Origin: Panopea generosa
Taxonomy: Eukaryota; Mollusca; Bivalvia; Adapedonta; Hiatellidae
Reading direction: 5' to 3'
DNA length: 64,000 bases
NCBI GenBank assembly: GCA_029582155.1
Contig: CM055896.1
Span: forward strand, 10,347,463 to 10,411,462
Part shown: positions 8,401 to 62,641 of the stretch, in pieces
Numbering within the stretch: the first letter of the stretch is position 1
Layout: the number at the start of each line of letters is the position of its first letter
Position numbers and translations under genes: made by a program
The notes under the pieces: model-generated
What the model was told of the DNA's origin: nothing
Seen by the model: only the letters and a program-made list of their open reading frames with translations
Databases searched by the model: none

Positions 8401-11400
8401 TTAGTCTTCAAGGTCATATGTTTTCTGTCTTAAAAGTCATATATGTTCTGTCTTGAAGGTCAAATATCTTCTGTATTGAAGGTCATATCTTCTGTTTTGA
8501 AGGTTAAATATCCTATGTCTTCTGTTTTGAAGGTCATATAATTATATTATGTGTTGAAGATCTTATATTTTCTGTCTTAAAGGTTACCGGTATGTCTTCT
8601 CTCTTAAAGGTCATTGCATATTCTATTGTGAAGGTCATGTGTGCTCTGTCCTTAAAGTCATATGTAAACTGCAAAGGAATATCAATTACATGAAAATACT
8701 GAAGTCGTTTTTTTAAGTAGTGTGCTTAATTTGAATATGAAAATGAGCTACTATTGAGTCTAAGTAAAATAACAGACTTGAGTATTTTTGTGAAAAACCA
8801 ATTGGGGAATCTCCTCCACCTAAAGGTCAGGTCTAAATTGACACCGTTGATTTGCAATAAAAGACGGTAAGACTTTAAATCTCTGTTGTGGAGATGTTTT
8901 GAAAGTATATGTACAGTCATAACCTGTCTCGATGGAAAAAAGCAAAAATGTCCCCTTGATGAATGTGGTTGCTTAATACAAGATGATTAAAACTAAATTG
9001 ATAAAAATGGTAAATAGTAAATATGACTGTTTGAGAAGAAGCTTTAATAGAGGTGACCGCTAACACAAGTTTGACTATTTACAAAAAAAGCTATTAGAAA
9101 ATAATCATTTAAATGGAGAAATGACGTTACACTGGTTTGAAAAATGCTCTAAGCTTTTGCTGTCCGACACAATATGGACAACCTTCAAAATATAAATTCC
9201 ATGATTTAAATATTTTGTATTAAAGGCTTTAAGCATTTGAACTACACAGAAATATATATATGTTGCCTGTATTTGACCTGTATGTATTGTGTATATTTCA
9301 CAGAGCATGAAGTCTACCTCACAATCCAAGCTGCCATCTGCTCCTTCACCTCATCAAACCAATTGGAATCGCTCGACTGGTACTCCTTCCCCGATGTCGC
9401 CTTCACCATCACCGGCCAACAGTGTTTGCTCCGTGGGATCTGTGGTAAGGCTCACATCAAGGGCTTCTTTATTTATCTTGGCGTCCAGTCAAGTTGAGGA
9501 TCACATCAAGTAAATCTTGATATCTATTGCCTCCCTGCCAAATCCAAGGTCAGATCAAATAGATCTATATATCTCCTGCCTTCCTGCCAAATCTAGGATC
9601 AGATCAAATTAGATTTTAATATATTTTGCCTCCCTGCCAAATCAAGGGTCACATCAAGTAGATCTATATATCTCCTGCCTCCCTGCCAAATCCGGGGTCA
9701 CATCAAGTAGATCTATATATCTCCTGCCTCCCTGCCAAATCCAGGGTCACATCAAGTAGATCTATATATCTCCTGCCTTCCTGCCCAATCTAGGGTCACA
9801 TCAAGTAGATCTTTATATCTTCTGCCTCCCTACCAAATCCTGGGTCACATCAAGTAGATATATATATATATATAAAAATATATATATCTTCTGCCTCCCT
9901 GCCAAATCCAGGGTCACGTCAAGTAGATCTATATATCTCCTGCCTTCCTGCCCAATCTAGGGTCACATCAAGTAGATCTATATATCTCCTGCCTTCCTGC
10001 CCAATCTAGGGTCACATCAAGTAGATCTTTATACCTCCTGCCTACCTGCCAAAACCGGAGATATTGAATTGTTTATAAGTCAGTCAATCATGCTGTCTGA
10101 CCAGATAAATCTGTCTTGTCCGGCAATGCAGAGCTATTCCAGTTTGATTAAAAAGAAGAAGACCAGTATTTGTTCTTTTATCAATTCATTATTTCTATAG
10201 ATTGAGGATTTGATTTATGTTACTTTACATTTTGGAAAACTTGATTAGACACTGATTTTTAAATTTGTTGATGAATATTCTTTATTGGTGACTATTTTAT
10301 ACTGATGAATATTCTTATTTGGTGACTATTTTATACTGATGAATATTCTAAATTGGTGACAATTTTTTATTGATAAATATTCTAAATTGGTGACAATTTT
10401 ATATTGATGAATATTTCAAATTGGTGAATATTTTATATTAGTAAATTTAATAGTCTTAAACATTTAGCGTTTATGAAGGTTGTGTAGCTACCACAGATAC
10501 AAAAAAAGTATCTGGGAAAAAATAAGGATATTTACTTTGCTTCAAGCTCTATTTGTGCCTACATGCAGAGAGTAGTATTTATTTTCTATAATGATTGCCA
10601 TGTAGGCAGAGACTAGTATTTATTTTCTATAATAATTGCCATGTAGGCAGAGAGTAGTATTTATTTTCTATAATGATTGCCATGTAGGTAGAGACTAGTA
10701 TTTATTTACTATAATGATTGCCATGCTCATTGCTATGATTTTAACAACAGAATTGAGTTGAGCATGAAAAATGTTTTATAACCGTGCAGCCAGGTTGGTG
10801 AGTGATGCCAAAAATATGACCACTACATAGCTTACACATACGGTAAGCATTGACCAATGAATCAATGACAAAAGAATGAATGAATGCCTGAGTGAATAAA
10901 TGAATTCAGCTGTTTACAGCACATCAACAGAGGTTGTATGACCCCTACAGGAAAGAAGATTCAGGGCCAGCATTTAATAAAAACAAAATTGATTAATAAG
11001 TATGCAGACCAAACCTAGAACCTAAATTCATCAATATTTTGAGTGTGAGATTTACACTCAAACTCAAAATATCAAATATTTAAGATGCAAGTAACTTTTA
11101 TTGAACAATCAAATTACTATGTACGTATTTGCAGAAACAAGCAGTTTTAATGATTATATAACAGAAAATGTTACATGATCACATTTATCACCTGTAACTG
11201 TATGTTTACTTGGTTTTACAAAATCTCAGATAATTAGACGGAAATTATTGATAAATTTAGGCCCAGAACCTTGAAACCAGCAGCATTACAGAGTTCCAGC
11301 AAATTCTGCCCAAAAAACATGTACGTTAATGTCACCTTACGACATGCATGGTTGACACCGTAAAACTTTCTGTGTCTGTATTGGCACACAACAAAACTAA

Positions 11401-25659: not shown

Positions 25660-28465
25660 GCGAGGTGCATTATCCAATTATCACTGGCCTGGTATATTCT
25701 CCAATTATCACTGGCCTGGTATACTATCAACTTATCTCTGACCTGGTATATTATCCAATTATCACTGGCTTGGTATATTAACAACTTATCACTGGCCTGG
25801 TATATTATCCAATTATTACTGGTCTGGTATATTATCAACTTATCACTGGCCTCTGACCTGGTGTATTATCTTACCACTGGCCTAGTATATTATCAACTTA
25901 TCACTGGCCTGGTATATAATCAACTTACCACTGACCAGTATATTATCAAATTATCACTGGGCTGGTATATTATCAACTTATCTCTGACCTGGTATATTAT
26001 CCAATTATCACTGGCCAGGTATATTATCAACTTATCTTTGGCCCAGTTTGTTATCAACTTATCACTGGCTTTGTATATATTATCAACTAATCACAGCTGG
26101 TATATTATCAAGTGATCACTGGCCTGGTATATTATCAACTTATCACTGGCCTGGTATATTATCAACTTATCACTGAGCTGGTATATTATCAACTTATCTT
26201 TGGCCCAGTCTGTTATCAACTTATCACTGGCTTTGTATATATTATCAACTAATCACAGCTGGTATATTATCAAGTGATCACTGACCTGGTATATTATCAA
26301 CTTATCACTTGGCTGGTATATTATCAGCTTATCACTGACCCAGTCTATTATCAACTTATCACTGGCCCTGGATATTATCAACTTATCACTGGCCGTGTAT
26401 ATTATCAACTTATCACTGACCTGGTGTATTATCAACTTAACACTGGTGTGGTGTTTTATCAACTTATCACTGACCCGGTATATTATCAAACTATCACTGG
26501 CCTGGTATATTATTAACTTATCTCTGACCTGGTGTATTATCAACTTATCACTGGCCTGGTATATGATCAACTTATCACTAGCCTAACATATTATCAACTT
26601 TTCACTGGCCTGGTTTATAATCAATTATCACTGGCCTTGTATATTATCAACTTATGACTGACCTGGTATATTATTAATTTATCACTGGTCTGGTATATAA
26701 TCAACTTGTCACTGGCCTGGTATATAGTCAACTTGTCACTGTCCTGGTATATTATAAACTTATCACTGGCCTGGTATATGATCAACTTATCACTGGTCTG
26801 GTATATTATAAACTTATCACTGGCCTGGTATATGATCAACTTATCACTGGCCTGGTATATTATCAACTTAACACTGGCCTGGTATATTATCAACTTATCT
26901 CTGACCTAGTATATAATCAACTTATCACTGGCCTGGTATATTATCAACTTATCACTGGCCTGGTTTATTATCAACTTATCTCTGACCTGGTATATGATCA
27001 ACTTATCACTAGCCTAATATATTATCAACTTTTCACTGGCCTGGTATATAGTCAACTTGTCACTGTCCTGGTATATTATAAACTTATCACTGGCCTGGTA
27101 TATGATCAACTTATCACTGGTCTGGTATATTAACAACTAATCTCTGACCTGGTGCATTATCAACTTATCACTGGTCTGGTATATGATCAACTTATCACTA
27201 GCCTAGTATATTATCAACTTTTCACTAGCCTGGTATATAATCAACTTATCATTGGCCTGGTATATGATCAACTTATCACTGGCCTGGCATATTATCAACT
27301 TAACACTGGCCTGGTATATGATCAACTTATCACTGGGCAGGTATATGATCAACTTATCACTGGGCAGGTATATGATCAACTTAACACTGGCCTGGTATAT
27401 GATCAACTAATCACTGGGCAGGTATATGATCAACTTATCACTGGGCAGGTATATGATCAACTTATCACTGGGCAGGTATATGATCAACTTAACACTGGCC
27501 TGGTATATGATCAACTAATCACTGGTCTGGTATATGATCAACTTATCACTGGCCTGGTATATTATCAACTTATCACTGGCCAGGTATATTATCAACTTAA
27601 CACTGGCCTGGTATATGATCAACTAATCACTGGTCTGGTATATTATCAACTTATCACTGGCCTGGTATATTATCAACTTATCACTGGCCAGGTATATTAT
27701 CAACTTATCACTGGCCTGGTATATGATCAACTTATCACTGGCCTGGTATATTATCAACTTATCACTGGCCTGGTATATTATCAACTTATCACTGGCCTGG
27801 TATATTATCAACTTATCACTGGTCTGGTATATTATCAACTTATCACTGGCCTGGTATATTATCAACTTATCACTGGCCAGGTGTATTATCAACTTATCAC
27901 TGGCCTAGTGTATTACCAACTTATAATGGACCCGGTGTTTTATCAACTGATCACAGGCCCAGTGTATTATCAACTTAACTCTGACATGGTGTAATACCAA
28001 CTTATCACTGACCCAGTGTATTATCAACTTATCACTGACCTGGTGTATTACCAACTTATCACTGACCTGGTGTTTTATCAACTTATCACTGACCTGTTGT
28101 TATATCAACTTATCACTGACCTGGTGTATTACCAACTTATCACTGACATGGTGTATAACCAACTTATCACTGACCTGGTGTTATATCATCTTATCACTGA
28201 CCTGGTGTTTTATCAACTTATCACTGACCTGGTGTATTACCAACTTATCACTGACCTGGTGTTATATCAACTTATCACTGACCTGGTGTTTTATCAACTT
28301 ATCACTGACCTGGTGTATTACCAACTTATCACTGACCTGGTGTTATATCAACTTATCACTGACCTGGTGTATTATCAACTTATCACTGGCCAGGCGTATT
28401 ATCAACACCGACTGATCTGGTATATTATCAAATCATTACTAGCCGTGTGTATTATTAATTTCTAA
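25660..28465. repeat. 27 bp satellite array, about 100 copies
   Basis: The unit TTATCACTGGCCTGGTATAT plus TATCAAC covers 2.8 kb. Subfamilies are regional: GGCCTGGTATAT units dominate to about 27900, and GACCTGGTGTATTACC units from about 27990 to 28400. Some units have TATGATCAAC. The period is a multiple of three, which gives a 280-residue repetitive open frame at 27152-27994 (nine-residue LITGLVYYQ unit) and others on both strands. Confidence 0.97.
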
Positions 28466-31744: not shown

Positions 31745-34360
31745 TACAATTTCTTAACTCCATTTATATAACAATCACTCATAAATTGAGGATGGAATAC
31801 AAAGTTGATAGAGTCACATCCTCACCACTCCAAAGTTGATAAAACCTTCCCATCTCCCACCATTTCAAAGTTTAAACAACCTTCCCCTCTCCCACCATTT
31901 CAAAGTTGATCAGTCCCTCCTCCCCCCCACCACTCCAAAGATGATACTGCCTCCTCCTCCCCCACCTCTCCAAAGTTGGAACAGCCACTTTTCCTTCCTC
32001 CACATACCTTTCACCCACACTCCAAAGTTGATACAACCTCCCTCTCCCCCAACATTCCAAAGTTGATAAGACCCTCATCCCCTCCCCATCACTCCAAAGT
32101 TGTCCCCACCACTCCAAAGTTGATACAGTTCCCCTCTCCCACCACTCCAAAGTTGATACAGCCCCCCTCCCACACTATTCCAAGTTGATAAGTCCCTCTT
32201 CCCCCACCCCACCACTCCAAAGGTGATACAAACCCCTCCCACACCACTTCAAAGTTGATACACCCCGCTCCCACACCCTTCCAACTTGATAAGTCCCTCC
32301 TCCCCTCCCCATCACTGCAAAGTTGATACAGTCCCCTCCCACACCATTCCAAGTTGATAAACCCCTCCTCCCCTCACCAACACTCCAAAGATGATACAGA
32401 CCCCTCCCCCACCACTCCAACGTTGATATAGCACCCTCCCCCACCACTCCAAAGTTGATACAGCCCCCTCCCACACCATTCCAAGTTGATAAGTCCCTCC
32501 TCCCCTCCCCAACACCCCAAAGGTGATACAGACCCCTCCCACACCACTCAAAAGTTGATACAGCCCCCTCCCCCACCACTCCAAAGTTGATACAGCCCCC
32601 TCCCCCACCACTCCAAAGTTGATTAGTCCCGCCTCCCCTTCCCCATCATTCCAAAGGTGATACAGCCACCTCCCTCACCACTCCAAATTTGATACAGCAC
32701 CCTCACACACCATTCCAAGTTAATAAGTCCTCTTCTCCTCCCCCACCACTCCAAAGGTGATACAATTTCTTAACTCCATTTATATAACAATCACTCATAA
32801 ATTGAGGATGGAATACAAAGTTGATAGAGTCACATCCTCACCACTCAAAAGTTGATACAGCCCCCTCCCCCACCACTCCAAAGTTGATACAGCCCCCTCC
32901 CACACCATTCCAAGTTGATTAGTCCCGCCTCCCCCCTTCCCCATCATTCCAAAGGTGATACAGCCACCTCCCTCACCACTCCAAAGTTTATACAGCACCA
33001 TCCCACACCATTCCAAGTTTATAAGTCCTTTTCCCCTCCCCCACCACTCCAAAGGTGATAGGTGATACAGCCCCCTCCACCACCACTCCAAAGTTGATAC
33101 AGCCTTATCTCCCTCACCACTCCAAAGTTGATACAGCACCCTCCCACACCATTCCAAGTTAATAAGTCCTTTCCCCTCCCCCACCACTCCAAAGGTGATA
33201 CAGCCCCCTCCGCCACCACTCCAAAGTTGATACAGCCTCATCTCCCTCACCACTCCAAAGTTGATACAGCACCCTCCCACACCATTCCAAGTTTATAAGT
33301 CCTCTTCCCGTCCCCCACCACTCCAAAGGTGATACAGCCCCCTCTGCCACCACTCCAAAGTTGATACAGCCCCCTCCGCCACCACTCCAAAGTTGATACA
33401 GCCCCCTCCCCCACCACTCCAAAGGTGATACAGCCACCTCCCACACCATTCCAAGTTTATAAGTCCTTTTCCCCTCCCCCACCACTCCAAAGGTGATACA
33501 GCCCCCTCCCACACCATTCCAAAGTTGATACAGCCTCATCTCCCTCACCACTCCAAAGTTGATACAGCACCCTCCCACACCATTCCAAATTTATAAGTCC
33601 ATTTCCCCTCCCCCACCACTCCAAAGGTGATACAGCCCCCTCCGCCACCACTCCATAGGTGATACAGCCCCTCCCCCACCATTCCAAAGTTGATACAGCC
33701 TCATCTCCCTCACCACTCCAAAGTTGATACAGCACCTCCCACACCATTCCAAGTTTATAAGTCCTCTTCCCCTCCCCCACCACTCCAAAGGTGATACAGC
33801 CCCCTCCCAAACCATTCTAAAGTTGATACAGCCTCATCTCCCTCATTACTCCAAAGTTGATACAGCACCCTCCCACACCATTCCAAGTTTAGAAGTCCTC
33901 TTCCCCTCCCCCACCACTCCAAAGGTGATACAGCCCCCTCTGCCACCACTCCAAAGTTGATACAGCCCCCTCCCCCACCACTCCAAAGTTGATACAGCCC
34001 CCTCCCCCACCATTCCAAAGTTGATACAGCCCCCTCCCCCACCACTCCAAAGTTGATACAGCACCCTCCCACACCATTCCAAGTTTATAAGTCCTGTTCC
34101 CCTCCCCCACCACTCCAAAGGTGATACAGCCACCTCCCTCACCACTCCAAAGTTGATACAGCCTCATCTCCCTCATCACTCCAAAGTTGATACAGCACCC
34201 TCCCACACCATTCCAAGTTTAAAAGTCATCTTCCCCTCCCCAACCACTCCAAAGGTGATACAGCCCCTCCCCCACCACTCCAAAGTTGATACAGCCTCAT
34301 CTCCCTCACCTATCCAAAGTTGATACAGCCCCCTCCCCCACCATTCCAAAGTTGATACTG
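31745..34360. repeat. ~30 bp C-rich minisatellite downstream of copy 1
   Basis: The unit is about CCACTCCAAAGTTGATACAG plus CCCCCTCCC. Blocks of four to five variant units (including CCATTCCAAGTTTATAAGTC) repeat as higher-order modules. About 85 bases of the non-repeat left flank (31745-31830) reappear inside the array at 32761-32846. An array of the same unit occupies the same position beside copy 2 (51670-54530). Confidence 0.95.
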
Positions 34361-35515: not shown

Positions 35516-35928
35516 TCAAGTTGGTGATACTAAAGCACCGTTGAATGTTGCAACAATGCCTCTAAATAAATATTGAAATCCATGACAATACACATGAACA
35601 CCGTCACCAACAACTAATGTCAGATATACAGACGCAGATGCACCATGAAAACGGCCTGCTACAGCCGACGGTTCGTGTGCATTAGCGACAGCAATATTAT
35701 GTCCGTTATGTTGTATGTAACACGATGAAGCACCTGCTGTACCTGAATGCAATATTGAAATATCAAAACTATAGATGCCCGGTACACCACACGTGAACTC
35801 CCCTGACGTTACGTTGTATCCACTGCCCATATTCGTTACAATCGTTCTATAAATAACAACACCACTATCGGTCCCTCCATTACTGAGGGTACTCCGTGGG
35901 TTATTAACAGAGAAGACGACAACTGGAG
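35516..35928 (-). CDS. C1q-domain exon, copy 1 (terminal)
   Basis: The acceptor is a strong pyrimidine tract (TTTTCTCCTCCAG) and the first two bases complete a GCT codon. It encodes PVVVFSVNNPRSTLSNGGT.. to FNGALVSPT and a TGA stop. C1q hallmarks are GEFTCGVPGIYSFDIS (the G-x-Y-x-F core), a VYLTLVVGDGVHVY strand and a closing F.GALV. There is a sequon in GYNVTSG. The same frame stays open upstream to an ATG at 35984-35986, but that stretch is intron. Compared with copy 2, about 36 of 137 residues differ, half of them in the loop region from HSGTAG to FHGASA. Confidence 0.9.
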
Positions 35929-38900
35929 CTGGAGGAGAAAACAGATTTGATAATCTCGACTGGCAGATCGTCATAAAACGCTGCATATAGTTTTAATACA
36001 TGATACAACTTTGTAGATTGTAGTAGAGCATGTATAGTTGACACATTCTGTTAAATATCTTAAAAATGAGATTATCGTAGTCTCAGTATCCTTATATTTT
36101 ATTTATAATCTATTGTGATTAATGATTTCTTTATTTAATATCTTAAAAATGTGACACAATTCGTGTATCTATATTAAAAAAGCAATCATTATTGTTGGTA
36201 CATGTTTTTTTTTTAGTTAAAAACATTACAATTTTGCAAAATACATTTTAAGCGTTTTGAAACCGTCGCATTTAAGGTTGATCGCGATATTCCTATCGGC
36301 TTTTTTGACATCTGGCGTAAATTATCAAAATTCTGTACACTTTCGTTTTAGCATTTTTGGATATAGTACCGACGTTTCTCGTTTTCAGCGCCCTAGAAGT
36401 ACGTATTTTTCACACAAATCTTGCCGTGTTTCCCTTATAAAAAAGTAAATAATAATTCAAATATTGTTTTTGAATTATTTATCCTGCGATAAGACAGGAT
36501 AAACAAATAGAACACAAATTGTGTTACCTTTACATCTAATTATTGAGGCCCTCCCGGGGGTTTTGGAGATCTGGAGAACATGGCAATTTTTTTCAGAGAT
36601 CTGGGGAACATTGGCCATTATTTTCAGAGATCCAGGGATCAAAGGCCTAATTTTAGAGATATAGAGATATTGTCCTTAATGAAAAAAAGTACCTAATTTG
36701 ATCAATTTTATCAGAGACATATAAACAGAGATAAGCAACTGGAGGCACTTATCTAAATTTCAGGTGGCACATTTTGGCTTTTTCTAGTTTAGTTCGGACT
36801 TACTTATTTTACTTCGATTTTGAAACAAGTTCTTACGACTTAGACAAATCACGCTCGAAGTCTTCCCGGGTTTAACCAGTTCTAAGCACATGTGGAAAAA
36901 GTGTCTTGCTCAAGGACACCACACATATTCGTGGCGAAGGATTGAAATACCCACGACCCTCCGATCACGGGTTCGGTGCTTTACCACTAGATCACGTGGC
37001 GTTTTCTAAATCATGGAAACACACATCCTCCAGAATCAAACAACATACTTTTGTGATTATGATATCAAAAGAAAGGGCTTGATTTGGGAGATTATTTTTT
37101 TCTTTTTTAAATTTAAAGAAATGAAGAATTTTACGCTTAAAGTTTTTTTGTGTCATCGTTTTCTCTTTTTTAGCCCATTTTTGAAATAAGAAATAAAGAA
37201 AACCACTTCAATAAATGTCAATATGAAACTTTCGCCACCGATGGAAAACTTACTGCTTCATCTTTCCACCTAATATTTCTATTTTTATCGTGTTTTGTTT
37301 AAACGTACATGGCATTTGTTAAATCAAGACTACCGTTTTTTGTTTAAAATCTTTTTTTCCGTTAAATTTCAACATATTTCGATTTCAATCCATAATAATT
37401 TAATTTCAGAAAAAAAAATTAAATAATTGATAGATGTAATTGGTCATATTTTTTATCAGCTTTACTTTGGCACCAAAATTGTTAAATTCAGACCAAGATT
37501 CGAAGAGTTATTATAGAAATGCTAAAAGTGCCATGGACATTATATTACTATTAACCTGCCAGTTTCTGTAATTAAGTAACTGATTTTATGTATAATTTTT
37601 ATACTTGATTATAATTTAATTTTAAAATGAGATGTCGACTGCTTGAAACAGCTTTTGACAGCTTTGGGGGTTTCTTACGTGTTATTCTGGGCCCCTGCAC
37701 AACTTCATCCCATAATCGTATGTACTCGAAATAAATTTTGGATGGTAATTCCGACAAAAGATATATTTACATTACCGACGAGTAAAGGCAGAATAGTGCA
37801 GTGGTTAATGTCGTCGATTTCGGAATGTAAGGACTGGTGTTCAATCCCACCCGGCATCTACTATTTTTTATTAGATCGTGTTTACACAATAAAGTCAATT
37901 TTTTATGTGTATTTATAATTATTTATGTGTATTGTAAATTAACCGTTCAGCTGTTCAATTTTTTTTATCTCTTCTGTCCTTCCATCGATATCTTCTTTGA
38001 CTCTACTTGCCAAAGGCGAGCAGGGCTTATGTCGTGGTAAATTGTCCGTCGTCCATTCGTTAACCTTTTTCTTGTAGAAGCTATAGCATCCCCAACATTT
38101 TTCAAAGAATCTTATCCAAACTCGCACAGCATTTGTATAACCACAAACTCCTGAAGTTCTTGAACCAGCGTGATTGAACCACAAATGCTCCATGCCACAG
38201 GCCTTACAAGCACATTTTTAAGGAAACTTAAAAAACACCTTTTCTCTGAAAGTTCAAGCCATAGACCATAGATATTTTAAACAAGGAAAAGAAGACAGTA
38301 CATGGATTTTTTTAATATGATGTTGTGTAAATAATAATAGAGAAGATTATAGTAGACGTTTTACTTAAGGAAACACTAGTTGGTACTTTCAGGGAACTAT
38401 GTTTAAAACTTTTGGAGATCTGGGGAACAATAGGCATTACTTTAAGAGTTCCAGTGAACAGGGACCCCCCATGGGAGGGTCTCATTATTACGACGGGGTT
38501 GATTAAAACGCGGGTGATTTCAGATGACGTCAAGAGAACGCCATGTAAAACGTAATATACGACGTCGTCCGAAATCGCAGGCAAGCGTCGTGTGTTTTTA
38601 AATGGTTCAATTTTGATTTAAATTGCAATTTTTAAAAAAAACATTTTTTGGTCATATTATAGTGAAATAAATAATAGTGGAAAAAAAGTTTAACATACGT
38701 GAAATTAAAGAACTTGTATCTGATTGTTATTTTTCGCAACCATCAGTGAATGTTCAAATTCCTTGTTTTTAAACCCGCGTATTATATTTTAAATCCCGTC
38801 GTATTGATAAAATGTAAAAGAATCGCAAATTTTACTTTATCTGTATAAAATTTATACTCTTATAACAGGAAATAAAATAAGTAATTTAAAAGTGTTATTA

Positions 38901-41900
38901 AAAAAATAACAATTAATATTGATCATAATATAAGGGAAAAAGGCAAAAGTCTTCCGGAAAATACGTACTGATAAGAGGCGTTGTTATGAATCTGTTAGTT
39001 GGATAAACTGCTAGTAAAATCAAACTAAACTCTACCTGGACACGCATGCGTATTGCACGTGTGATATTCATCATCTTGCCCAACACATTGTTTCCCTAAA
39101 ATGGAAGGACTTGGGTTATCGCAGGATCTTGACCTCGATACCAATCCGCCGTTACAGGACGCCGAACAAACTGACCAGGTAGTCCAAGCTGACCAACCCC
39201 CATCTACAATTGACTATGACATATCAAGACATGATACACAATCTATTTTTGTTTAATATGCTACAACACCATTTAAAACATTATTATAATGTTATTTAAT
39301 TATAGATTACGTGTATACGTTTTAACGCTCTTCTAATTATTTTTAAAATGTAGTATATTATATAAATTTAACTGTTTTTTAACTAAATATATTATGCACG
39401 TTTATAGTGAAAAGCAGAATTTACGTCGAGTTGAAACATAAATAAACAACGTGATTTTGTCAGTTAATTTGATATTGAAATGATGTGTTGCAATTATAAA
39501 TGATTAATAGATACAAAAGTAAGTGTACAAAACCGAAATATTTAAAATTACCTGTGCAGGCTCCCGGGAGACACACGCGGTCATCTCTTGCGCCCCCAAA
39601 GCAAGGATTTTCGTCTGGGCCAGGGTACGGCCGACTACAACTGCGTTCTCTGTGCTGTAATCCAACACCACAAGACACACTACAAGATCCCCACGCTGAC
39701 CATCCACTCCAACCACTGTGTACTGTAATAGATAGAGTCTAATAAAGAAGAGTTATGGCCCTTGTTTAATTTTGAAATATTAGTAACGTTTACTGCTAAG
39801 GTTACTATCGTCATACAGATACCAAACATATTAATAAGAATTAATTGAAAAGTGACTAAGTTTCATCTACATGCACATACTTTCCGAAGTCGTTCAAAAC
39901 CCGATTGGAACGACCACAACTTTAATAGTGTACATGCCCAGTAAGAGATGAAGCATTTAACGACCAAAGCAGCACAGTCACAATAAATACAGACACTAAC
40001 TATAATGATGGTAAGCACAAAACAAAAATACAGAGAAAACGAACACTACTATTAAATTGCAATATATTTACAACATCCAGTCCCAGTGTGCTGTATGTTT
40101 AAACGTAAACGTAGACTACCAGGCAGTTATGACATAATACTGATAATTATAACATGAGTATCGCATAAACGTATATGACTGTACTGTAACGGACAGAGGC
40201 CACACCATTTACGACAGACCGTCTTGGCATGGGCCACATCACCGCAAATGTTGAAGGTTCCACTGATTAGTTCACAGTTATAGTCCGGGTCATCATGGCA
40301 TTGGCCGTCAGTGTTGGTTATTACTGAACGTATTATATAGAACATTAATATAATTGGTAGAAATACTAAAACAAACGTAAGTGATAATGTGTCTATTCAC
40401 TAACCAATAATATGAAAATAAAAAGATACACCTTACACTACGCCTTTGTTATTAATATTATTAATAACTGAATTACATACTTCTAGCTGAGATCAGCAGA
40501 AACTGTTATAAAAGAAGCATTGGATAAATATTGGTAAACAGTAAATTCGGTAATTGTATTATCCCAAATATTTTGCTGCCTTGTAAAGAAATAACAGCAA
40601 CACTTGCGTTAGTTCTTATAATTTACTGAATAGTAAAACAACGATACGTGTATTGTCGCCAATACTTTAGTGACCAGTAATATAGAAACGATGACACTTA
40701 CATTATTCGATTGGATACACATTAGCGACAATACAGGCATTATTCCTAATACCTAACCAATTGGATACACATTAGCAACAATACAGGCATTATTACCAAT
40801 ACCTAACCAATTGGATACACATTTGCGACAATACTTGAATTATTCCCAATACCTAACCGATTGGATACACATTAGTGACAATACTTGAATTATACCCAAT
40901 ACCTAACCAATTGGATACACATTTGCGACAATACTTGAATTATTCCCAATACCTAACCGATTGGATACACATTAGCGATAATACTTAAATTATTCCCAAT
41001 ACCTAACCGATTGGATATACATTAACGACAATACTTGAATTATTCCCAATACCTAATTGATTGGATACACATAAGCGACAATACTTGAATTATACCCAAT
41101 ACCTAACCGATTGGATACACATTAGCGACAATACTTTAATTATACCCAATACCTATCCGATTGGATACACATTGGCGACAATACTTGAATTATTCCCAAT
41201 ATCTAACGGATTGGATACACATTAGCGACAATACTTGAATTATACCCAATACCTATCCGATTGGATACACATAGGCGACACTACTTGAATTATTCCCAAT
41301 TCCTAACCGATTGAATACACATTAGCGACAATACTTGAATTATACCCAATACCTAACGGATTGGATACACATTAGCGACAATACTTGAATTATTCCCAAT
41401 ACCTAACCGATTGGATACACATTAACGACAATACTTGCATTATTCCTAATACTTTACTGACTGGTAAAATAGTAACAACAATACTTGAATTATTTCCCAA
41501 TTCTTTTAGACTAGGAAACAATAGCGACCAATACTATTGTATTCTTCTATATAACCTTACTTTGTGTAGGGTTGTTGCAAATCTTTTTGTTACAGTAGTC
41601 CGTCCCACAACACTGTTGACAACCAATGGATGACTGGCTGCTACGATCGTCCAACTTCCTCCCCACTATTGATACAGGACCGGCTGTACTCGTTCTTATG
41701 CATTGCTGTGGATGAAAAAGTAGTTTGTGTTTTCAATGAAATACACTAAAGAAAAATACACAATCAACAAAAGTGGTTATCACTTCTTTTGTACAAATAA
41801 CTTATCCATTTGTGAATATATACCCCGTTCACACTTCATAAAACTGACTTTCAGTTCATCCATGTGTCTCTACTACAATACTTTAAGTGTGATTATAATG

Positions 41901-44104
41901 TGAAACCAAACAATAAAGGGTTGTTATTCAACCGCGTACTGCTAAGAACATAACAACTGAAAAATGTACCATCCATGTTTAGAAATATTAGTCTTGTAGT
42001 TTAGTCAAGGAACCTCGTTGGTTTGATGCTGATGAAAAAAATTATTGGCGAATATAAATAGTAAAACATTAATGTTTACTTACTGCAGATGTTCTGCATC
42101 CTAGAGTGAAATCAGTGTTGTTCCCTAAACCTCTTGCCTCTGTGAAACATTCCTGAAATATGAACGTACAAATATGAAAAAATAAAGGGAATGGACGAAT
42201 CCAATGTTAAGAGAACTTGTGACCAGATATTTTTGTATATAATTGTATTTGATTTATATGCATTATATAATATATTATATGGCGATAAAATATGTTTCAT
42301 CTATAAGAAATGAACTTGACAATATCGTTTCGAAACATTTCACAGACAGTCCTACACTATTGTTAAAAACGAAATGTGGGCGGTACAGTCAGTGCTTTAA
42401 AGACCTTATCTAATAGGTTAGTGGGCAGTTAAAGTATGTTTCAATGTAAGAACAGTTATTCAATATTTCAAAGATAACAGGTTTTAAATTTGTTTTTGTA
42501 CAAATTGTTTATTCGTTAATGTTTGATTAACAACAGTTATATTTATTCTATGAGTTATGAGAACAGCTCACCTCATCCAACGAGCACTTGACTGCTGATA
42601 AACAGTCAGATATGTTTGGAATATTGGTACAAGAAAAACATTCCAATGTTTCTGAAAATAATTTCATATCAAATATTATATTCAATAAAACCATAGATGA
42701 ATTTGCAGACATTGTCATACGTTTGTCAGTATATGTTAACGGGTAAAAGCTATAACTACTTGGTTTATGTCATCGAGGGCTAACAAACGTTCGATTAAGC
42801 TAACTACACTTTTCTATAATCTAGGAATGGGTTAACCGGTACCGATCGCAACCATTGCTGCATTTAACCGATACCTTTCACACAGAGAGGCAATGCTGTA
42901 TATCAATCATCACGGAGACTATGGGTGGGTGGGGATTTAAAAACGCGTCCCCTGAATTGATAGTCAGACGCTCTATTGATTGAGATCACCGGACTAGAAT
43001 GACGATCATAATAATAGCTATGATGTAATAAAACCAAAATTGCTTTATATAACGTCATTCTCCTATGATTTTGCTTATGGAAAATATTCACCAAACCAGA
43101 TGCTTATGTGATCAATCATTTTATCATTACAAAGCATATTTCAAAATCTCTATCATAGAACGTTCGCCGTTACTCAATGTTTTTATTATCAATGGTATTA
43201 AACTTTCTGATTGATTTGAACAATGGCGCCCGTTTGTTATGGTTCGAACACTGTATACTGCTGAACCTGGTACTGAGAGTGCTAAGAGACGTGACAGGTG
43301 CTGCATATTCCATTATCCCACTTGAACAGACTCGTACAATATGAAATAAACATATCAGAAAAGTTAGTAGACTATATTCGTCTCTCTTCATATACTACTA
43401 AAATATAATTTGTTTTACAGAATGCTTATCATGAACTTTCAACATTCCCTTTAATTTTTTTTCATGTTTGCATGTGACATGTAATGTGTAAGAAGAAAAC
43501 ATGCTGAAATGTAAACTTTGTTACATGTTATACGTACTGCAATGTAAACTTTGTTACATGTTATACGTACATGTCATACGTACTGCAATGTAAACTTTAT
43601 TACAAATAAAAATATGCAAGGCAGCTTTGTAATCTAATCCATTTAAATACGATACATATTAAAACTATATTGCATTACTATAATTATATTGACCAAAAGA
43701 TGACGTCATTGTTGATTGCTGCAATTGGTTAGTAACATAAGCTTAATATTTTTTAAGTTTAATATATATAAAACTGATAAAAATCAGAATCTTTGTAACA
43801 TTAGCCAAGTTTTGATTTGATGACAGCAGCCCGTTAACAATATTTTAAATATTGGATTACCTGATACATGGACATGCCAGACCGCCAGTAGAACTGTCAA
43901 TAAACCAACACCTTAAAGTATAAATAGAGAACAGCGTAATATAACTAACTCTACTACTACATATGGCTATTTTCAAATCAAGACGTAATTCAAACGATGT
44001 AACTTACATCACATGGTTTAAGCCATTTCCTTTATTAAATACACCAATGTAAATTTAAATAGATATGTACTAAAAGTTTAAAAGTAAGATCTACCTGAAT
44101 GCAT
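35516..44104 (-). CDS. Secreted LU-ShKT-TSP1-TSP1-C1q protein, copy 1 (eight exons)
   Basis: The exons, in transcript order, are 44095-44104, 43861-43911, 42572-42651, 42084-42152, 41561-41705, 40180-40323, 39552-39722, 39036-39203 and 35516-35928 (nine segments, the first only ten coding bases). Phases agree at every junction. The chain reads: signal peptide starting MHSGVGLLTVLLAVW, LU domain with ten cysteines ending CCGTDYCNKKIC, a six-cysteine ShKT-like domain, two TSP1 repeats (WSxW..CSxSC type), and a C-terminal C1q domain of about 130 residues. The product should be extracellular; C1q domains usually trimerise and bind ligands. The donor after the ShKT exon is weak, and one TSP1 exon found in copy 2 is absent. 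I know of no described family with this order. Homologous copy at 56270-64000. Confidence 0.65.
36793..37002 (-). repeat. tRNA-derived SINE, family 3, nested in the TIR element
   Basis: The tRNA-like head is at the right (complement of CGACCCTCCGATCACGGGTT and GCTTTACCACTAGATCACG), and the body matches 30435-30645. Confidence 0.65.
37776..37860 (+). repeat. tRNA-like SINE head
   Basis: CAGAATAGTGCAGTGGTTAA (box A-like) and ACTGGTGTTCAATCCCACCC (box B-like) are spaced as in a tRNA. The body downstream is short and AT-rich. It lies inside the 1.94 kb insertion. Confidence 0.45.
37939..38193 (-). CDS. Short Cys-rich open frame inside the TIR element, unknown
   Basis: The 84-codon frame starts MEHLWFNHAGSRTSGVCGY and has FFEKCWGCYSFYKKK, ending in a charged stretch with EEIKKIEQLNG and TAA. 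Residues before the ATG continue in frame as KCACKACG, so a C-x-C-x2-C cluster precedes it. It has mixed composition, unlike the AT-rich random frames nearby. It lies wholly inside the element absent from copy 2, so it may be an element gene fragment or a captured exon. I do not recognise it. Confidence 0.3.
   Translation of the reverse strand: MEHLWFNHAGSRTSGVCGYTNAVRVWIRFFEKCWGCYSFYKKKVNEWTTDNLPRHKPCSPLASRVKEDIDGRTEEIKKIEQLNG
39036..39203 (-). CDS. TSP1 repeat exon (C1q-proximal), copy 1
   Basis: The exon is 168 nt, phase 1 to phase 1, with acceptor TCAATTGTAG and donor GTAGAG. It encodes DGGWSAWTTWSVCSASCNG, then six cysteines in total ending HTCNTHACPG. This is the thrombospondin type 1 pattern W..W..CS..C. 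Only about 8 of 168 bases differ from copy 2. Confidence 0.9.
39552..39722 (-). CDS. TSP1 repeat exon, copy 1
   Basis: The exon is 171 nt, phase 1 to phase 1, with acceptor CTATTACAG and donor GTAATT. It encodes HSGWSGWSAWGSCSVSCG, then RPYPGPDENPCFGG and VCLPGACTG. The CSVSCG motif fits the O-fucosylation consensus of TSP1 repeats. Confidence 0.9.
40180..40323 (-). CDS. ShKT-like exon, copy 1
   Basis: It encodes ITNTDGQCHDDPDYNCEL then FNICGDVAHAKTVCRKWCG and LCPL, with six cysteines spaced as in ShKT domains. The acceptor is ACGTTCAG. At the place where copy 2 has the donor TTAG|GTGTGT, copy 1 reads TTACAGTACAG. The nearest donor that keeps phase 1 is ACA|GTCATA, which is weak and sets the end given here. 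Homology alone would end the domain near 40186. Confidence 0.7.
40690..41450. repeat. 50 bp minisatellite, about 15 copies, copy 1 intron
   Basis: The unit is CCGATTGGATACACATTAGC then GACAATACTTGAATTATTCC and CAATACCTAA. The matching intron of copy 2 (about 60750-61060) has only a few diverged, related units, so the expansion is specific to copy 1. Confidence 0.93.
41561..41705 (-). CDS. LU-domain exon 3, copy 1
   Basis: The exon is 145 nt, phase 0 to 1, with acceptor TTCATCCACAG and donor A|GTAAGG. It encodes QCIRTSTAGPVSIVGRKL, a single DDRSSQSS segment, then GCQQCCGTDYCNKKIC. The CCxxDxCN ending is the signature of Ly6/uPAR three-finger domains. In copy 2 the DDRSSQSS segment is tandemly repeated. 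Confidence 0.88.
42084..42152 (-). CDS. LU-domain exon 2, copy 1
   Basis: The exon is 69 nt, phase 0 to 0, with acceptor ATATTTCAG and donor GTAAGT. It encodes ECFTEARGLGNNTDFTLGC then RTSA. The frame is open here; copy 2 has a stop at the Leu codon after ARG. Confidence 0.85.
42572..42651 (-). CDS. LU-domain exon 1, copy 1
   Basis: The exon is 80 nt, phase 1 to 0, with acceptor TTATTTTCAG and donor GTGAGC. It encodes ETLECFSCTNIPNISDC then LSAVKCSLDE. The C-x2-C start just after the signal peptide is typical of LU domains. Confidence 0.85.
42805..42998 (-). repeat. tRNA-derived SINE, family 4, in a copy 1 intron
   Basis: It matches 16520-16730 (ACCGATACCTTTCACAC, ATCAATCATCACGGAGACT, CCCCTGAATTGATAG). 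The corresponding intron of copy 2 (62700-62930) lacks it, so it probably inserted after the duplication. Confidence 0.5.
43861..43911 (-). CDS. Signal-peptide exon, copy 1
   Basis: The exon is 51 nt, phase 1 to 1, with acceptor TACTTTAAG and donor GTAATC. It encodes VGLLTVLLAVWHVHVS, a hydrophobic core followed by a plausible cleavage site before ETLECFSC. It was found by phase and hydrophobicity, not by a long open frame. Confidence 0.65.
44095..44104 (-). CDS. Start-codon exon, copy 1
   Basis: ATGCATTCAG is followed by a GTAGATC donor. It supplies M-H-S and the first base of a Gly codon completed by the next exon. With that exon it makes a complete signal peptide. A TATA-like box lies about 40 bases upstream of the ATG. 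Confidence 0.6.
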
Positions 44105-44140: not shown

Positions 44141-44149
44141 CTTATATAG
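44141..44149 (-). promoter_or_regulatory. Candidate TATA box of copy 1
   Basis: CTATATAAG on the minus strand is centred about 41 bases upstream of the ATG, with CCAAT at about 44160. A start site 25-30 bases downstream would leave a 5' UTR of roughly a dozen bases. Confidence 0.4.
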
Positions 44150-51669: not shown

Positions 51670-54530
51670 CCCACCACCACCCTAAAGCACCCTTCGCCCA
51701 CCAATCCAAAGTTGATGCAGCCTCACCCATCCCTCAAAAGTTGATACAGCACTCTCCCCAACAACTCAAAAGTTGATACAGCCTCACCCATCACTCTAAA
51801 GATGATACAGCCCTCTCCCCAACCACTCCAAGGTTGATTCAGCCCTCTTCCCTACCACTCCAAAGTTGATAAAGCCCCTCCCTCACCACTTCAAAGTTGT
51901 TAAAGCACTCCCACCACTCCAAAGTTGTTAAAGCACTCCCACCACTCCAAAGTTGTTAAAGTACTCCCACCACTCCAAAGTTGATACAGCCCTACGCATC
52001 ACTCCAAAGTTGATACTTCCTTACGCATCACTATAAAGTTAATACATCCCTATGCATCACTTTAAAATTGATAAAGCCCATCCACACCACTCTTAAGTTG
52101 ATTCAGCCCTCTTCCCCAACTACTCCAAAGTTGATACATTTCACCACTCCAAAGTTGATACAGCCTCCCCAACACTTCAAAGTTGATAGAGCCCAACAAC
52201 TACCTTAAAGATGACACAGCCCTACGCATCACTCTAAAGATGATACAGCCCTCTCCCCCACCACTCCAAAGTTGATACAGTCCTCTTCCCTACCACTCCA
52301 AAGTTTATAAAGCCCCTCCCTCACCACTTCAATGTTGTTAAAGCACTCCCACCACTCCAAAGTTGATACAGCCATACGCATCACTTTAAAGTTGATACTT
52401 CCCTACGCATCACTATAAAGTTAATACATCCCTATGCATCACTCTAAAATTGATAAAGCCCATCCACACCACTCCAAAGTTGATACAACTTCCCCAACTA
52501 CTCCAAAGTTGATACAATTCACCACTCCAAAGTTGATACAGGCTCCCCAACACTTCAAAGTTTATAAAGCCCAACAACTACCTTAAAGATGATACAGCCC
52601 TCTCCCCCAACACTCCAAAGTTGATACAGCCCTCTTCCCTACCACTCCAAAGGTGATAAAGCTCTTCCCTCACTACTTCAATGTTGTTAAAGCACTCCCA
52701 CCACTTCAAAGTTGTTAAAGCACTTCCACCACTCCAAAGGTGATACAGCCCTACGCATCACTCCAAAGTTGATACATCCCTATGCATCACTCTGAAATTG
52801 ATAAAGCCCATCCACACCATTCCAAAGTTGATACAACTTCTCCAACTACTCCAAAGTTGATACATTTCACCACTCCAAAATTGAAACAGCCTCCCCAACA
52901 CTTCAAAGTTGATACAGCCCAACAACTACCTTAAAGATGACACAGCCTTACGTATCACTGCTGATACAACCCATCACTCCAAAAATGATAAAGCCCCCTC
53001 CCCAACCAATCCAAAGTTGATACAGCCTCCCCCACTACTTCAAAATTGATACAGCGCACCACACCAAGTTGAAAAAGCCCCCGCCTGATCACTCCAAAGT
53101 TGATACAACCTCCCCAACCAATCCAAAGTTGATACGGCCTCCCCCACTACTTCAAAATTGATACAGCCCACCACTCCAAAGTTGATACAGCCCACCACAC
53201 CAAAGTTGATACAGCCCACCACACCAAAGTTGATACAGCCCACCACACCAACGTTGATACAGCACACCACACCAAAGTTGATACAGCCCACCACACCAAA
53301 GTTGATACAGCCCACCACTCCAAAGTTGATACAGCCTCTTCACCACCACTGTAAACGTGATACAGTCTCCCCCACCATTCCAAAGTTGATACAGACCCCT
53401 CCCCCACCACTCCAAAGCGGATATAACCACCCTTCCCCAGCACTCCAAAGATGATACAGCCCCCTCCCCCAACACTATTACAAAGTTGATACAGAACCCT
53501 CCACAAACACTCCAAAGCGGATATAACCAACCTTGCCTAGCACTCCAAAACTGATACAGCCCCCTCCCCCAACACCACTCCAAAGTTGATACAGCCCCCT
53601 CCCCCACCACTCAAAAGATGATACAGACCCCTCCCCCATCACTCCAAAAATGATACAGATTCTTCCCCCGCAACTCCAAAGATGATACAGACTCCCCCAG
53701 CCACTCCAAAGATGATACAGAATCTCCCACCACTCCAAAGATGATAAGACCCCCTCCCCATCACTCCAAAGATAATACAGACCCCCCGCTTCTCCAAAGA
53801 TGATACAGAACCCCACTTACCACTCCAAAGTTGATACAGACCCCTCCCCTACCACTCCAAAGCGGATATAACCACCCTTCCCCAGAACTCCAAAGATGAT
53901 ACAGCCCCCTTCCCCAACACTATTACAAAGTTGATACAGAACCCTCCACAAACACTCCAAAGCGGACATAACCAATCTTCCCTATCACTCCAAAACTGAT
54001 ACAGCCCCCTCCCCCAACACCACTCCAAAGTTGATACAGCCCCCTCCCCCACCACTCAAAAGATGATACAGACCCCTCCCACATCACTCCAAAAATGATA
54101 CAGATTCTTCCCCCGCCACTCCAAAGATGATACAGACTCCCCCCAGCCACTCCAAAGATGATACAGAATCTCCCACCACTCCAAAGATGATAAGACTCCC
54201 CCCCACCACCCCAAAGATAATAAAGACCCCCCACTTCTCCAAAGATGATACAGAACCCCACTTACCACTCCAAAGATGATACAGACCCCCAACCACTCCA
54301 AAGATGATAAGACCCCCCCCCCCACCACTCCAAAGATAATACAGACCCCCGCTTCTCCAAAGATGATACAGAACCCCACTTACCACTCCAAAGATGATAC
54401 AGACCCCCCACCACTCTAAAGATAACACAGACCCCCGCTTCTCCAAAGATGATACAGAACCCCACTTACCACTCCAAAAATAACAGAGACCCCTCCACCC
54501 ACCATTCCAAAGATGATACAGTAACACCAT
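51670..54530. repeat. ~30 bp C-rich minisatellite downstream of copy 2
   Basis: Same unit as 31745-34360 (CCACTCCAAAGTTGATACAG) but with different variants (AAAGATGATACAG, AGCGGATATAACC, ACGCATCACTATAAAG). Modules of about 445 bp repeat in its right part (AGCGGATATAACC at 53416 and 53861). A run of CCACACCAAAGTTGATACAG units is at 53190-53310. Confidence 0.95.
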
Positions 54531-56269: not shown

Positions 56270-56682
56270 TCAAGTTGATGATACTAAAGCACCGTTGAAT
56301 GTTGCATTAATGTTTTTATATAAATACTGAAATCCATAACAATAAACGTGAACAATGTCTCCAACAACTAATGTCAGATATACAGACGCAGATGCAGCAG
56401 GTTGACCGCCTGCTGTAGGCGACGGTGCGTATGTATCAGCGACAACAATATTATATCCGTTATGTTGTATGTAAAAATATGATTGACCTGCAGCAGTTGT
56501 GTGCAATATTGAAATATCAAAACTATAGATGCCCGGTACACTACACGTGAACTCCCCTGACGTTACGTTGTATCCAATGCCCACATTCGTTATAATCCTT
56601 GTATAAACAACAACACCACTATCGGTCTTTCCATTACTGAGGATACTCCGTGGAGAATTAACAGAGAAGATGACAACTGGAG
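56270..56682 (-). CDS. C1q-domain exon, copy 2 (terminal)
   Basis: It is 413 nt, the same length and phase as copy 1, with acceptor TGTCTCTTCCAG. It encodes PVVIFSVNSPRSILSNGKT.. to FNGALVSST and TGA. The core GEFTCSVPGIYSFDIS is kept while the loop HTTAAGQSYFY to GGQPAASA differs strongly from copy 1. There are extra sequons: NVTSG as in copy 1, plus NATF near the end. Confidence 0.88.
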
Positions 56683-57768
56683 CTGGAAGAGACAACACAC
56701 TTGATAATCTCAACTGACAGACCGTACGAAAACGCTGCATATAGTTGTAATACATAATATAACTTTGTAGATTGTAATAAAGCTGTGTAGTTGACACATT
56801 CTTAAAAATTCCCAGTTTATTTATATTTTATTTATAATCTAATGTGTTCAATGATTTCTTTATTTAATATCTTAAAAATGTGACACAATTCGTGTATCTA
56901 TATTAAAATTGCAATCATTATTGTTGGTACATGTACTTTTTTAAGTTAAAAACATTACCATTTTGCAAAATACATTTTAAGCGTATTAGAAACGTTCCAT
57001 TTAAGGTTGATCGCGATATTCCTTTCAGATTTTTTGACATCTGGCGTAAATTATCAAAATTTTGTACACTTTCGTTTTAGCTTTTTTGGATATAGTACCG
57101 ACGTTTCTCGTTAGCAGCGCCCGCCAGCAGTACGTATTTTTCGAACAAATCTTGCCGTGTTTCCCTTATAAAAAAGTAAATAATAATTCAAATAGTGTTT
57201 CTAAATTATTTATCCTGCGATAAGACAGGATATACAAATAGAGCACAAATAGTGTTCCTTTACATCTAATTATTACGACGGAGATTAAAACGCTGGTTAT
57301 TTCAGATGATGTCAAGAGAACGCCATGTAAACCGTAAAATACGACGTCATGTGTTTTTAAATGGTTCAATTTTGATTTAAATTCGAATTTATGAAGAAGA
57401 AAAACAATTGGTCATATTATAGTGAAATAAATATAACATATGTTAAATAGAAGAACTTGTATCTGAGTGTTTTTTTTCGCAACCATCAATGAATGTTCAA
57501 ATTCCTTGTTTTTAAACACGCGTATTATATTTTAAATCCGGTCGTATTGATAAAATGTAAAAGAACCGCACATTTTACTTATCTGTATAAAATTGAGACT
57601 ATTATCACAGGAAATAAAATAAGTAATTTAAAAATGTTATTAAAACATTTTACAATTAATATTGATCATAATATAAGGAAAAAAGGCAATAGTCTTCCGG
57701 AAAATACGTTATGAGTAGAGGCGTTGTTATGAATGATAAACTGCTAGTAAAATCAAACTTAACTCTAC

Positions 57769-58204: not shown

Positions 58205-58375
58205 CTTTGCAGGCTCCCGGGAGACAAACGCGGTCATCTCTTGCGTCCCCAAAGCAAGGATTTCCATCTGGGCCAGGGTACGGCCGGCTACAACTTCGGT
58301 CTCTCCGCTGTAATCCAACACCACAAGACACACTACAAGATCCCCAAGCTGACCATCCACTCCAGCTACCGTGTA
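58205..58375 (-). CDS. TSP1 repeat exon with lost acceptor, copy 2
   Basis: It encodes HGSWSGWSAWGSCSVSCG to VCLPGACKG, open throughout. The bases before it read ATTACAA, where copy 1 has ATTACAG, so the normal acceptor is missing. Skipping this 171 nt phase 1-1 exon would keep the frame. The next in-frame AG (TGGTCAG|CT) would remove the first WSGWS residues. Confidence 0.7.
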
Positions 58376-58886: not shown

Positions 58887-59057
58887 CTGGACACGTTCCA
58901 ACTAAACAATTTGAAACGTCTTGTTGACTTCCAACACAATCCAGCCCACCGTGTGAAGGTTTAGGTTCTGTGCATGACCGATTACATGACCTTTGACCAT
59001 GACCACAGGTGACACTACATCCCATCCAAGGTGACCATGATGACCAGTGTCCGTCAA
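58887..59057 (-). CDS. Third TSP1 repeat exon, copy 2 only
   Basis: 171 nt, phase 1 to 1, with acceptor ATTCTTAG and donor GTACGA. It encodes DGHWSSWSPWMGCSVTCG to CLVGTCPG with all six cysteines and a CSVTCG fucosylation-type motif. Copy 1 lacks this exon: about 1.4 kb is missing there between roughly 40030 and 40125. Confidence 0.88.
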
Positions 59058-60238: not shown

Positions 60239-60376
60239 CTAACGGACAGAGGCCACACCATTGACGACAAACCGTCTTGGCATGGGCCACGTCACCGCAA
60301 ATGTTGAAGGTTCCACTGATTAGTTCGCAGTTAAAGTCCGGGTCATCGTGACATTGACCGTCCGTACTGGTTATTA
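60239..60376 (-). CDS. ShKT-like exon, copy 2
   Basis: 138 nt, phase 1 to 1, with acceptor TTCTGTCAG and donor TTAG|GTGTGT. It encodes ITSTDGQCHDDPDFNCEL, FNICGDVAHAKTVCRQWCG and LCPL, with six cysteines as in copy 1. The splice donor is intact here, unlike copy 1. Confidence 0.85.
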
Positions 60377-61130: not shown

Positions 61131-61356
61131 TTTGTGCAGGGCTATTGCAAATCTTTTTGTTACAGTAGTCCGTCCCACAACACTGTTGACAACCCGTTGA
61201 TGACTGGCTGCTGCGATCGTCCAACCCCCTCCCCACTATTGACGATTGGCTGCTGCGGTCGTCTGACCCCCTCCCCACTATTGACGATTGGCTGCTGCGA
61301 TCGTCTGACCCCCTCCCCACTACTGACGATTGGCTACTGCGATCGTCCAACCCCCA
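61131..61356 (-). pseudogene. Partial tandem duplicate of LU exon 3, copy 2
   Basis: It repeats the 3' part of the exon (DDRSSQSS units, GCQQCCGTDYCNKKIC and the GTAAGG donor) together with the following intron bases, but lacks the 5' part with QC.GTSTTSPVS and its acceptor. Four DDRSSQSS units are present. It could serve as an alternative last LU segment only if an internal AG is used; more likely it is inert. Confidence 0.65.
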
Positions 61357-61416: not shown

Positions 61417-61645
61417 TTTGTGCAGGGCTATTGCAAATCTTTTTGTTACAGTAGTCCGTCCCACAACACTGTTGACAACCCGTTGATGACTGGCTGCTGC
61501 GATCGTCTGACTCCCTCCCCACTATTGACGATTGGCTGCTGCGATCGTCTGACCCCCTCCCCACTATTGACGATTGGATGCTGCGATCGTCCAACTTCCT
61601 CCTTACTATTGATACAGGACTGGTTGTACTCGTTCCTCTGCATTG
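61417..61645 (-). CDS. LU-domain exon 3 with 14-residue repeat expansion, copy 2
   Basis: 229 nt, phase 0 to 1, which is 84 nt (two 42 nt units) longer than in copy 1. It encodes QCRGTSTTSPVSIVRRKL, three DDRS(S/I)QSS segments joined by SIVGRGS-type linkers, then GCQQCCGTDYCNKKIC. The frame is preserved. The expansion lies in the loop before the final CC..CN cluster. Confidence 0.8.
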
Positions 61646-62340: not shown

Positions 62341-62409
62341 TGCAAACGGTCTGCATCCCAGAGTGTAATCAGTGCTGTTTCCTTAACCTCTTGCCTCTGT
62401 GAAACATTC
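62341..62409 (-). CDS. LU-domain exon 2 with in-frame stop, copy 2
   Basis: 69 nt with intact splice sites. It encodes ECFTEARG, then TAA where copy 1 has TTA (Leu), then GNSTDYTLGCRPFA. In this frame the protein would end within the LU domain. Confidence 0.7.
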
Positions 62410-62561: not shown

Positions 62562-62641
62562 CTCGTCCAAAGAGCACTTGACCACTAACGAACAGTCAGA
62601 TATAATCGGGATATTGGTACAAGAAAAACATTCCAATGTTT
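62562..62641 (-). CDS. LU-domain exon 1, copy 2
   Basis: 80 nt, phase 1 to 0, with acceptor TTGTTTTCAG and donor GTGAGA. It encodes ETLECFSCTNIPIISDC then SLVVKCSLDE. Cysteines match copy 1. Confidence 0.8.

What the first reader, a model, noticed from the sequence alone, without database searches (positions are those of the whole stretch)
35516..44104. New-looking domain order: LU, ShKT, TSP1 repeats and C1q in one secreted protein
Phase-consistent exons join a signal peptide, a ten-cysteine LU domain, a ShKT-like domain, two TSP1 repeats and a C-terminal C1q domain. Copy 2 shows the same order independently, which argues against a chance run of unrelated exons. C1q-domain proteins of molluscs usually have a signal peptide plus C1q, sometimes with a coiled coil. 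I know of none with LU, ShKT and TSP1 modules. It would act as an extracellular, probably oligomeric recognition protein; that role is inferred.
Basis: partly seen in the sequence, partly recalled or inferred. Interest (0 to 1): 0.9.

Follow-up and report, generated by a model that had tools for sequence, protein, structure and literature searches.

The report
Composite C1q recognition gene, damaged copies
A tandem pair of animal genes appears to join three-finger, ShK-like and thrombospondin modules to a C1q recognition head; the head looks fast-evolving while the front modules are conserved, but both copies carry splice or stop defects and no transcript has been seen.

Summary
The exons are real and in the stated order on the minus strand. 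C1q and TSP1 pass Pfam cut-offs; LU is sub-threshold but matches LU-type profiles full length; ShKT rests on cysteine spacing only. Two claims fail. (1) The chain is not fully phase-consistent in copy 1: the ShKT-like exon has lost its donor (TTAC|agtaca against TTAG|gtgtgt in copy 2). Skipping it gives an open LU-TSP1-TSP1-C1q frame. (2) Copy 2 is a tandem duplicate, not independent; it has an extra TSP1, an in-frame stop in an LU exon and a lost acceptor at one TSP1. One gene is supported by layout, phases and selection. LU and ShKT exons are under purifying selection (p about 2e-6). The C1q exon begins at a phase-1 acceptor, and no conserved signal-bearing start exon lies between it and TSP1. 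C1q amino-acid-changing differences (46 of 308 sites) exceed nearby noncoding divergence (166 of 1981; p=0.0005), though not its own synonymous rate significantly. Best reading: a secreted recognition protein with conserved front modules and a diversifying C1q head, akin to sSUEL/C1q and QREP proteins, each copy here reduced or decaying. New variant of a known kind.

The parts
44095..44104 (-). copy 1 exon 1, ATGCATTCAG, start of the putative signal peptide; TATA-like box at 44148
   Evidence: donor CAG|gtagat; tentative
43861..43893 (-). copy 1 exon 2, rest of the putative signal peptide
   Evidence: donor CAG|gtaatc; tentative, no copy 2 counterpart in the window
42572..42651 (-). copy 1 LU exon a (phase 1 to 0)
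   Evidence: 4 nonsynonymous against 7 synonymous differences to copy 2
42084..42152 (-). copy 1 LU exon b (phase 0 to 0)
41561..41705 (-). copy 1 LU exon c (phase 0 to 1), holds the CCxxxxCN end of the LU domain
40186..40323 (-). copy 1 ShKT-like exon; homologous donor lost (TTAC|agtaca)
39552..39722 (-). copy 1 TSP1-B exon (phase 1 to 1)
   Evidence: Pfam TSP_1 E=4.6e-10
39036..39203 (-). copy 1 TSP1-C exon (phase 1 to 1)
   Evidence: Pfam TSP_1 E=1.6e-11
35516..35928 (-). copy 1 C1q terminal exon, phase-1 acceptor, stop at its low end
   Evidence: Pfam C1q E=4.8e-14; PDB sequence matches; fold matches
62562..62641 (-). copy 2 LU exon a
62341..62409 (-). copy 2 LU exon b with in-frame TAA at 62385-62383
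61417..61645 (-). copy 2 LU exon c with an 84-nt in-frame repeat insertion
60239..60376 (-). copy 2 ShKT-like exon, donor TAG|gtgtgt present
58887..59057 (-). copy 2 extra TSP1-A exon, absent from copy 1
   Evidence: Pfam TSP_1 E=6.1e-9; (one search scored its donor one base off)
58205..58375 (-). copy 2 TSP1-B exon, acceptor AG changed to AA
57769..57936 (-). copy 2 TSP1-C exon
56270..56682 (-). copy 2 C1q terminal exon
   Evidence: Pfam C1q E=4e-14

Best explanation
The locus is a tandem pair of one composite gene whose ancestral plan was signal peptide, LU (three exons), ShKT-like, two or three TSP1 and a C-terminal C1q. The product would be secreted (inferred), trimerise through C1q (known for the family, inferred here) and use C1q as the variable ligand-binding head on conserved cysteine-rich front modules. 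Every exon after LU exon c is phase 1-1 and LU exon b is 0-0, so a lost splice site or stop can be bypassed by skipping without losing frame. Copy 1 most likely makes LU-TSP1-TSP1-C1q with the ShKT-like exon skipped, or uses a very weak donor. Copy 2 is more damaged and may be decaying. Shown: exon order, phases, domain matches, lesions, duplication, selection contrast. Inferred: transcription as one unit, secretion, oligomer, ligand binding.
For: Domain matches for C1q and TSP1 above cut-off, LU below it. Seven of 7 intact copy 1 donors rank in the best 5.1% of the GT sites on the minus strand of the window (recalled weight matrix). C1q starts at a phase-1 acceptor with a pyrimidine tract, so it needs a phase-1 exon upstream; TSP1-C provides one, 1.1 kb away in copy 2. 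No signal-like first exon conserved in both copies was found there (10 candidates in copy 2, 36 in copy 1). Skipping the ShKT-like exon leaves one open frame through C1q. LU plus ShKT: 22.5 of 89 synonymous against 19.5 of 334 nonsynonymous sites differ, p=1.6e-6 (rounded). C1q: 46 of 308 nonsynonymous sites differ against 166 of 1981 nearby noncoding sites, p=4.6e-4; synonymous 9 of 100 equals noncoding. The 36 differing C1q residues cluster: 18 in one 35-residue stretch, permutation p=0.006. Positive selection on C1qDC paralogue clusters is reported in Crassostrea virginica (PMC6835236, passages).
Against: No transcript. Copy 1 lacks a proper ShKT donor; copy 2 has a stop and a lost acceptor. 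C1q dN against its own dS is not significant (Fisher p=0.18; ratio 1.74, bootstrap 0.94 to 4.59). Differing residues are not enriched in modelled loops (11 of 40 against 25 of 96). TSP1-B and TSP1-C show no significant constraint (p=0.12). Several copy 1 acceptors score poorly (exon 2, LU a, ShKT-like and TSP1-C: 19 to 29% of the minus-strand AG sites score as well). The signal peptide is short.
Confidence: 0.55

Rival explanations
1. Two neighbouring genes: an LU-ShKT-TSP1 secreted protein that ends before 39 kb, and a separate C1q gene with its own start exon, duplicated together.
For: A 3.1-kb gap in copy 1 separates TSP1-C from C1q. Stand-alone signal plus C1q and coiled-coil plus C1q genes are the commonest bivalve types (PMC6835236, section seen). 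Neutral divergence differs on the two sides: 51 of 360 sites in the ShKT to TSP1-B intron against 166 of 1981 further 3' (p=0.001; one weak 71-bp row left out, with it 16.9%). A hydrophobic open stretch from an ATG at 56799 lies just before C1q in copy 2.
Against: The ATG at 56799 would leave an intron of about 32 nt, and the matching stretch of copy 1 stops after 17 codons (read). No conserved first exon was found; two-exon starts and other phases were not tested. Both donor and acceptor at the TSP1-C to C1q junction are intact and phase-matched in both copies.
Confidence: 0.2
2. The composite gene is real in ancestry but both copies are dead relics.
For: Three lesions in two copies: ShKT donor lost in copy 1, stop in LU exon b and TSP1-B acceptor lost in copy 2.
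Against: LU and ShKT exons still show purifying selection between copies, C1q frames are open in both copies over 136 codons with faster amino-acid change than nearby noncoding DNA, and each lesion hits an exon that can be skipped in frame (phases; copy 1 skip tested).
Confidence: 0.15
3. The lesions are assembly or haplotype errors and both copies are intact in the animal.
For: The stop and the acceptor loss look like single-base differences in a repeat-rich region (tandem arrays).
Against: The copy 1 donor change involves several bases beside a length difference of 1.4 kb in the intron, which is unlike a base error.
Confidence: 0.1

Closest known systems
sSUEL/C1q proteins of Crassostrea (PMC6835236, passages and section 2.1)
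   Same: secreted, N-terminal binding module joined to C-terminal C1q, in a tandemly expanding C1qDC family
   Different: front module is SUEL lectin, not LU, ShKT-like or TSP1
QREP proteins of gastropods (passages in PMC6835236 and PMC10672478)
   Same: composite of front binding domains and a C1q head
   Different: front domains are immunoglobulin-like
sC1q-like type II and sghC1q proteins of bivalves (PMC6835236, section 2.1)
   Same: C1q head, secreted, tandem duplication, reported positive selection in paralogue clusters
   Different: front part is a coiled coil or nothing
Molluscan LU/ShKT/TSP1 secreted proteins without C1q (recalled, no call)
   Same: the front half of this gene
   Different: no C1q head; existence recalled only

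Membership tests
C1q domain-containing protein (C1qDC) | C1q domain above the Pfam cut-off | tested here: met
   53.1 and 53.4 bits, cut-off 23.7, both copies; PDB C1q chains by sequence; Foldseek best matches are C1q domains of Caprin-2 and C1QL2, TM about 0.5, from a model of mean pLDDT 66
C1q domain-containing protein (C1qDC) | secretion signal | tested here: inconclusive
   14-residue putative peptide in copy 1, peak hydrophobicity 1.9; none in the window for copy 2
TSP1 domain protein | TSP_1 above the Pfam cut-off | tested here: met
   40, 44.7 and 36.4 bits, cut-off 21.6, for TSP1-B and C of copy 1 and TSP1-A of copy 2
LU (Ly6/uPAR) domain | profile match above the curated cut-off | tested here: not met
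   19.7 of 21.2 bits TOLIP, 14.8 of 24.8 UPAR_LY6; 18.6 and 15.8 bits on the longer sequence; shuffles 0 of 10
LU (Ly6/uPAR) domain | cysteine framework ending CCxxxxCN (motif recalled) | tested here: met
   sequence
ShKT domain | profile match | tested here: not met
   no ShK hit; no ShK chain; therefore called ShKT-like only
ShKT domain | six-cysteine spacing (recalled) | tested here: met
   C-x7-C-x9-C-x9-C-x3-C-x2-C
sSUEL/C1q or QREP | SUEL or Ig-like domain in front of C1q | tested here: not met
   no such match among the Pfam scans of the front exons of copy 1 and the TSP1-A and ShKT-like exons of copy 2

The most novel reading that the evidence does not exclude
A third class of composite molluscan C1q recognition protein, LU-(ShKT)-TSP1n-C1q, in which phase-matched exons let tandem copies drop or add front modules without losing frame while the C1q head diversifies under positive selection.
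Probability: 0.35. Interest if true: 0.65.

Novelty: new variant of a known kind. Interest (0 to 1): 0.45.

Why it matters
Bivalve-type C1q families are huge, and most members have little in front of the head. A composite with conserved cysteine-rich modules and a diversifying head would show which part is the sensor and which may dock to cells or matrix, and would let one test module loss between tandem copies directly.

Tried and rejected
Structure model of the ShKT-like exon: pLDDT 45, useless. PDB sequence search for LU: one hit above significance, prostate stem cell antigen E=0.44, suggestive only. Own-genome search: none held. Loop enrichment of C1q differences: none. tRNA genes near a SINE-like stretch at about 37 kb: none found. 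A coding first exon for C1q near 38 kb: the open stretch 37942-38217 has no Pfam match and no counterpart in copy 2. The LU c to ShKT-like intron divergence is dominated by a 50-bp tandem repeat and was not used, though its first 65 bases are 92% identical. For the noncoding rate I used 4 aligned blocks and dropped 7 short rows of the 3' flank. Codon counts left out the stop codon of copy 2 and 28 inserted codons of LU exon c.

Full report
What is there. Copy 1 runs on the minus strand from 44104 to 35516: exons 1 and 2 (putative signal peptide), LU a, b and c, a ShKT-like exon, TSP1-B, TSP1-C and C1q. Copy 2 runs from 62641 to 56270 in the window: LU a, b, c, ShKT-like, TSP1-A, TSP1-B, TSP1-C, C1q; its first exons are not in the window. 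C1q and TSP1 exceed Pfam cut-offs. LU is below cut-off but covers LU-type profiles nearly end to end, and 0 of 10 shuffled sequences matched those families. The ShKT-like exon has no profile support, only cysteine spacing.

Lesions. Copy 1 has no GT at the ShKT donor used by copy 2. Trial ends at 40187 and 40185 break the frame; an end at 40180 keeps it, but the donor after it (GT at 40179) is weaker than or equal to 68% of the GT sites on the minus strand of the window. Leaving the exon out gives one open frame from the first ATG to the C1q stop. Copy 2 has TAA in LU exon b, AA in place of AG before TSP1-B and an 84-nt in-frame insertion in LU exon c.

Duplication. The copies share introns and 3' flank, and related minisatellites lie 3' of each (32.1-34.4 kb and 51.7-54.5 kb). 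Divergence of aligned noncoding DNA is 6.9% between TSP1-B and TSP1-C, 8.4% between TSP1-C and C1q and 8.4% in the 3' flank, but 16.9% between ShKT-like and TSP1-B and 21.9% (146 sites) between LU b and c, and the LU a to b introns do not align. So the 3' half is younger or has been homogenised. Copy 2 is therefore not an independent witness for the order of the 3' half.

Selection. Nonsynonymous over synonymous ratios are 0.11, 0.37 and 0.46 for LU a, b, c, 0.08 for ShKT-like, 0.31 and 1.02 for TSP1-B and C, and 1.74 for C1q. LU plus ShKT constraint is significant (p=1.6e-6), TSP1 is not (p=0.12), and C1q against its own synonymous sites is not (p=0.18). Against nearby noncoding DNA the C1q excess is significant (46 of 308 against 166 of 1981, p=4.6e-4; with the two largest proximal blocks only, 101 of 1148, p=0.003). 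Local alignment may understate noncoding divergence; the synonymous rate of 9 of 100 agrees with it.

One gene or two. The C1q exon begins at an acceptor in phase 1 and TSP1-C ends with a phase-1 donor in both copies. Between them I found 10 one-exon start candidates in copy 2 and 36 in copy 1; the only strongly hydrophobic one, at 56799, is too close to the acceptor and not conserved in copy 1 (read). Two-exon starts were not examined. I give one gene the better odds.

What it would do. By the known behaviour of C1qDC proteins (PMC6835236 and PMC10672478, passages) the product would be a secreted, oligomeric pattern-recognition protein. The contrast of constrained front modules and a diversifying head suggests that C1q senses and the front modules attach or signal; this is inference.

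Known relatives and novelty. sSUEL/C1q and QREP proteins are composite C1q proteins of molluscs, and an oyster paper's legend mentions C1qDCs with an extra cysteine-rich domain (PMC4346834, passages). None of ten full-text searches listed this order, over open-licence papers only; no eukaryotic proteome could be searched. I file it as a new variant of a known kind.

Noticed in passing
61132-61242: Copy 2 has a second, partial copy of LU exon c downstream of the first, with the same 14-residue repeat expanded.
   Followed up: partly
146-409 and 11364-11645: Plus-strand open stretches match the AFF4 C-terminal homology domain (E=8.8e-4, below cut-off, and 7.4e-8): an AF4/FMR2-type gene lies at the left of the window.
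   Followed up: no
37942-38217: A 92-residue cysteine-containing open stretch in the copy 1 TSP1-C to C1q intron, absent from copy 2, no Pfam match.
   Followed up: partly
39.0-40.2 kb against 57.8-60.2 kb: Neutral divergence between copies drops from about 14-17% to about 7-8% around TSP1-B, as if the 3' half had been homogenised.
   Followed up: partly
25669-28431, 32104-34358, 51696-54521, 40708-41501: Large minisatellite arrays; the 32-kb and 52-kb arrays share a unit and flank the two gene copies.
   Followed up: no
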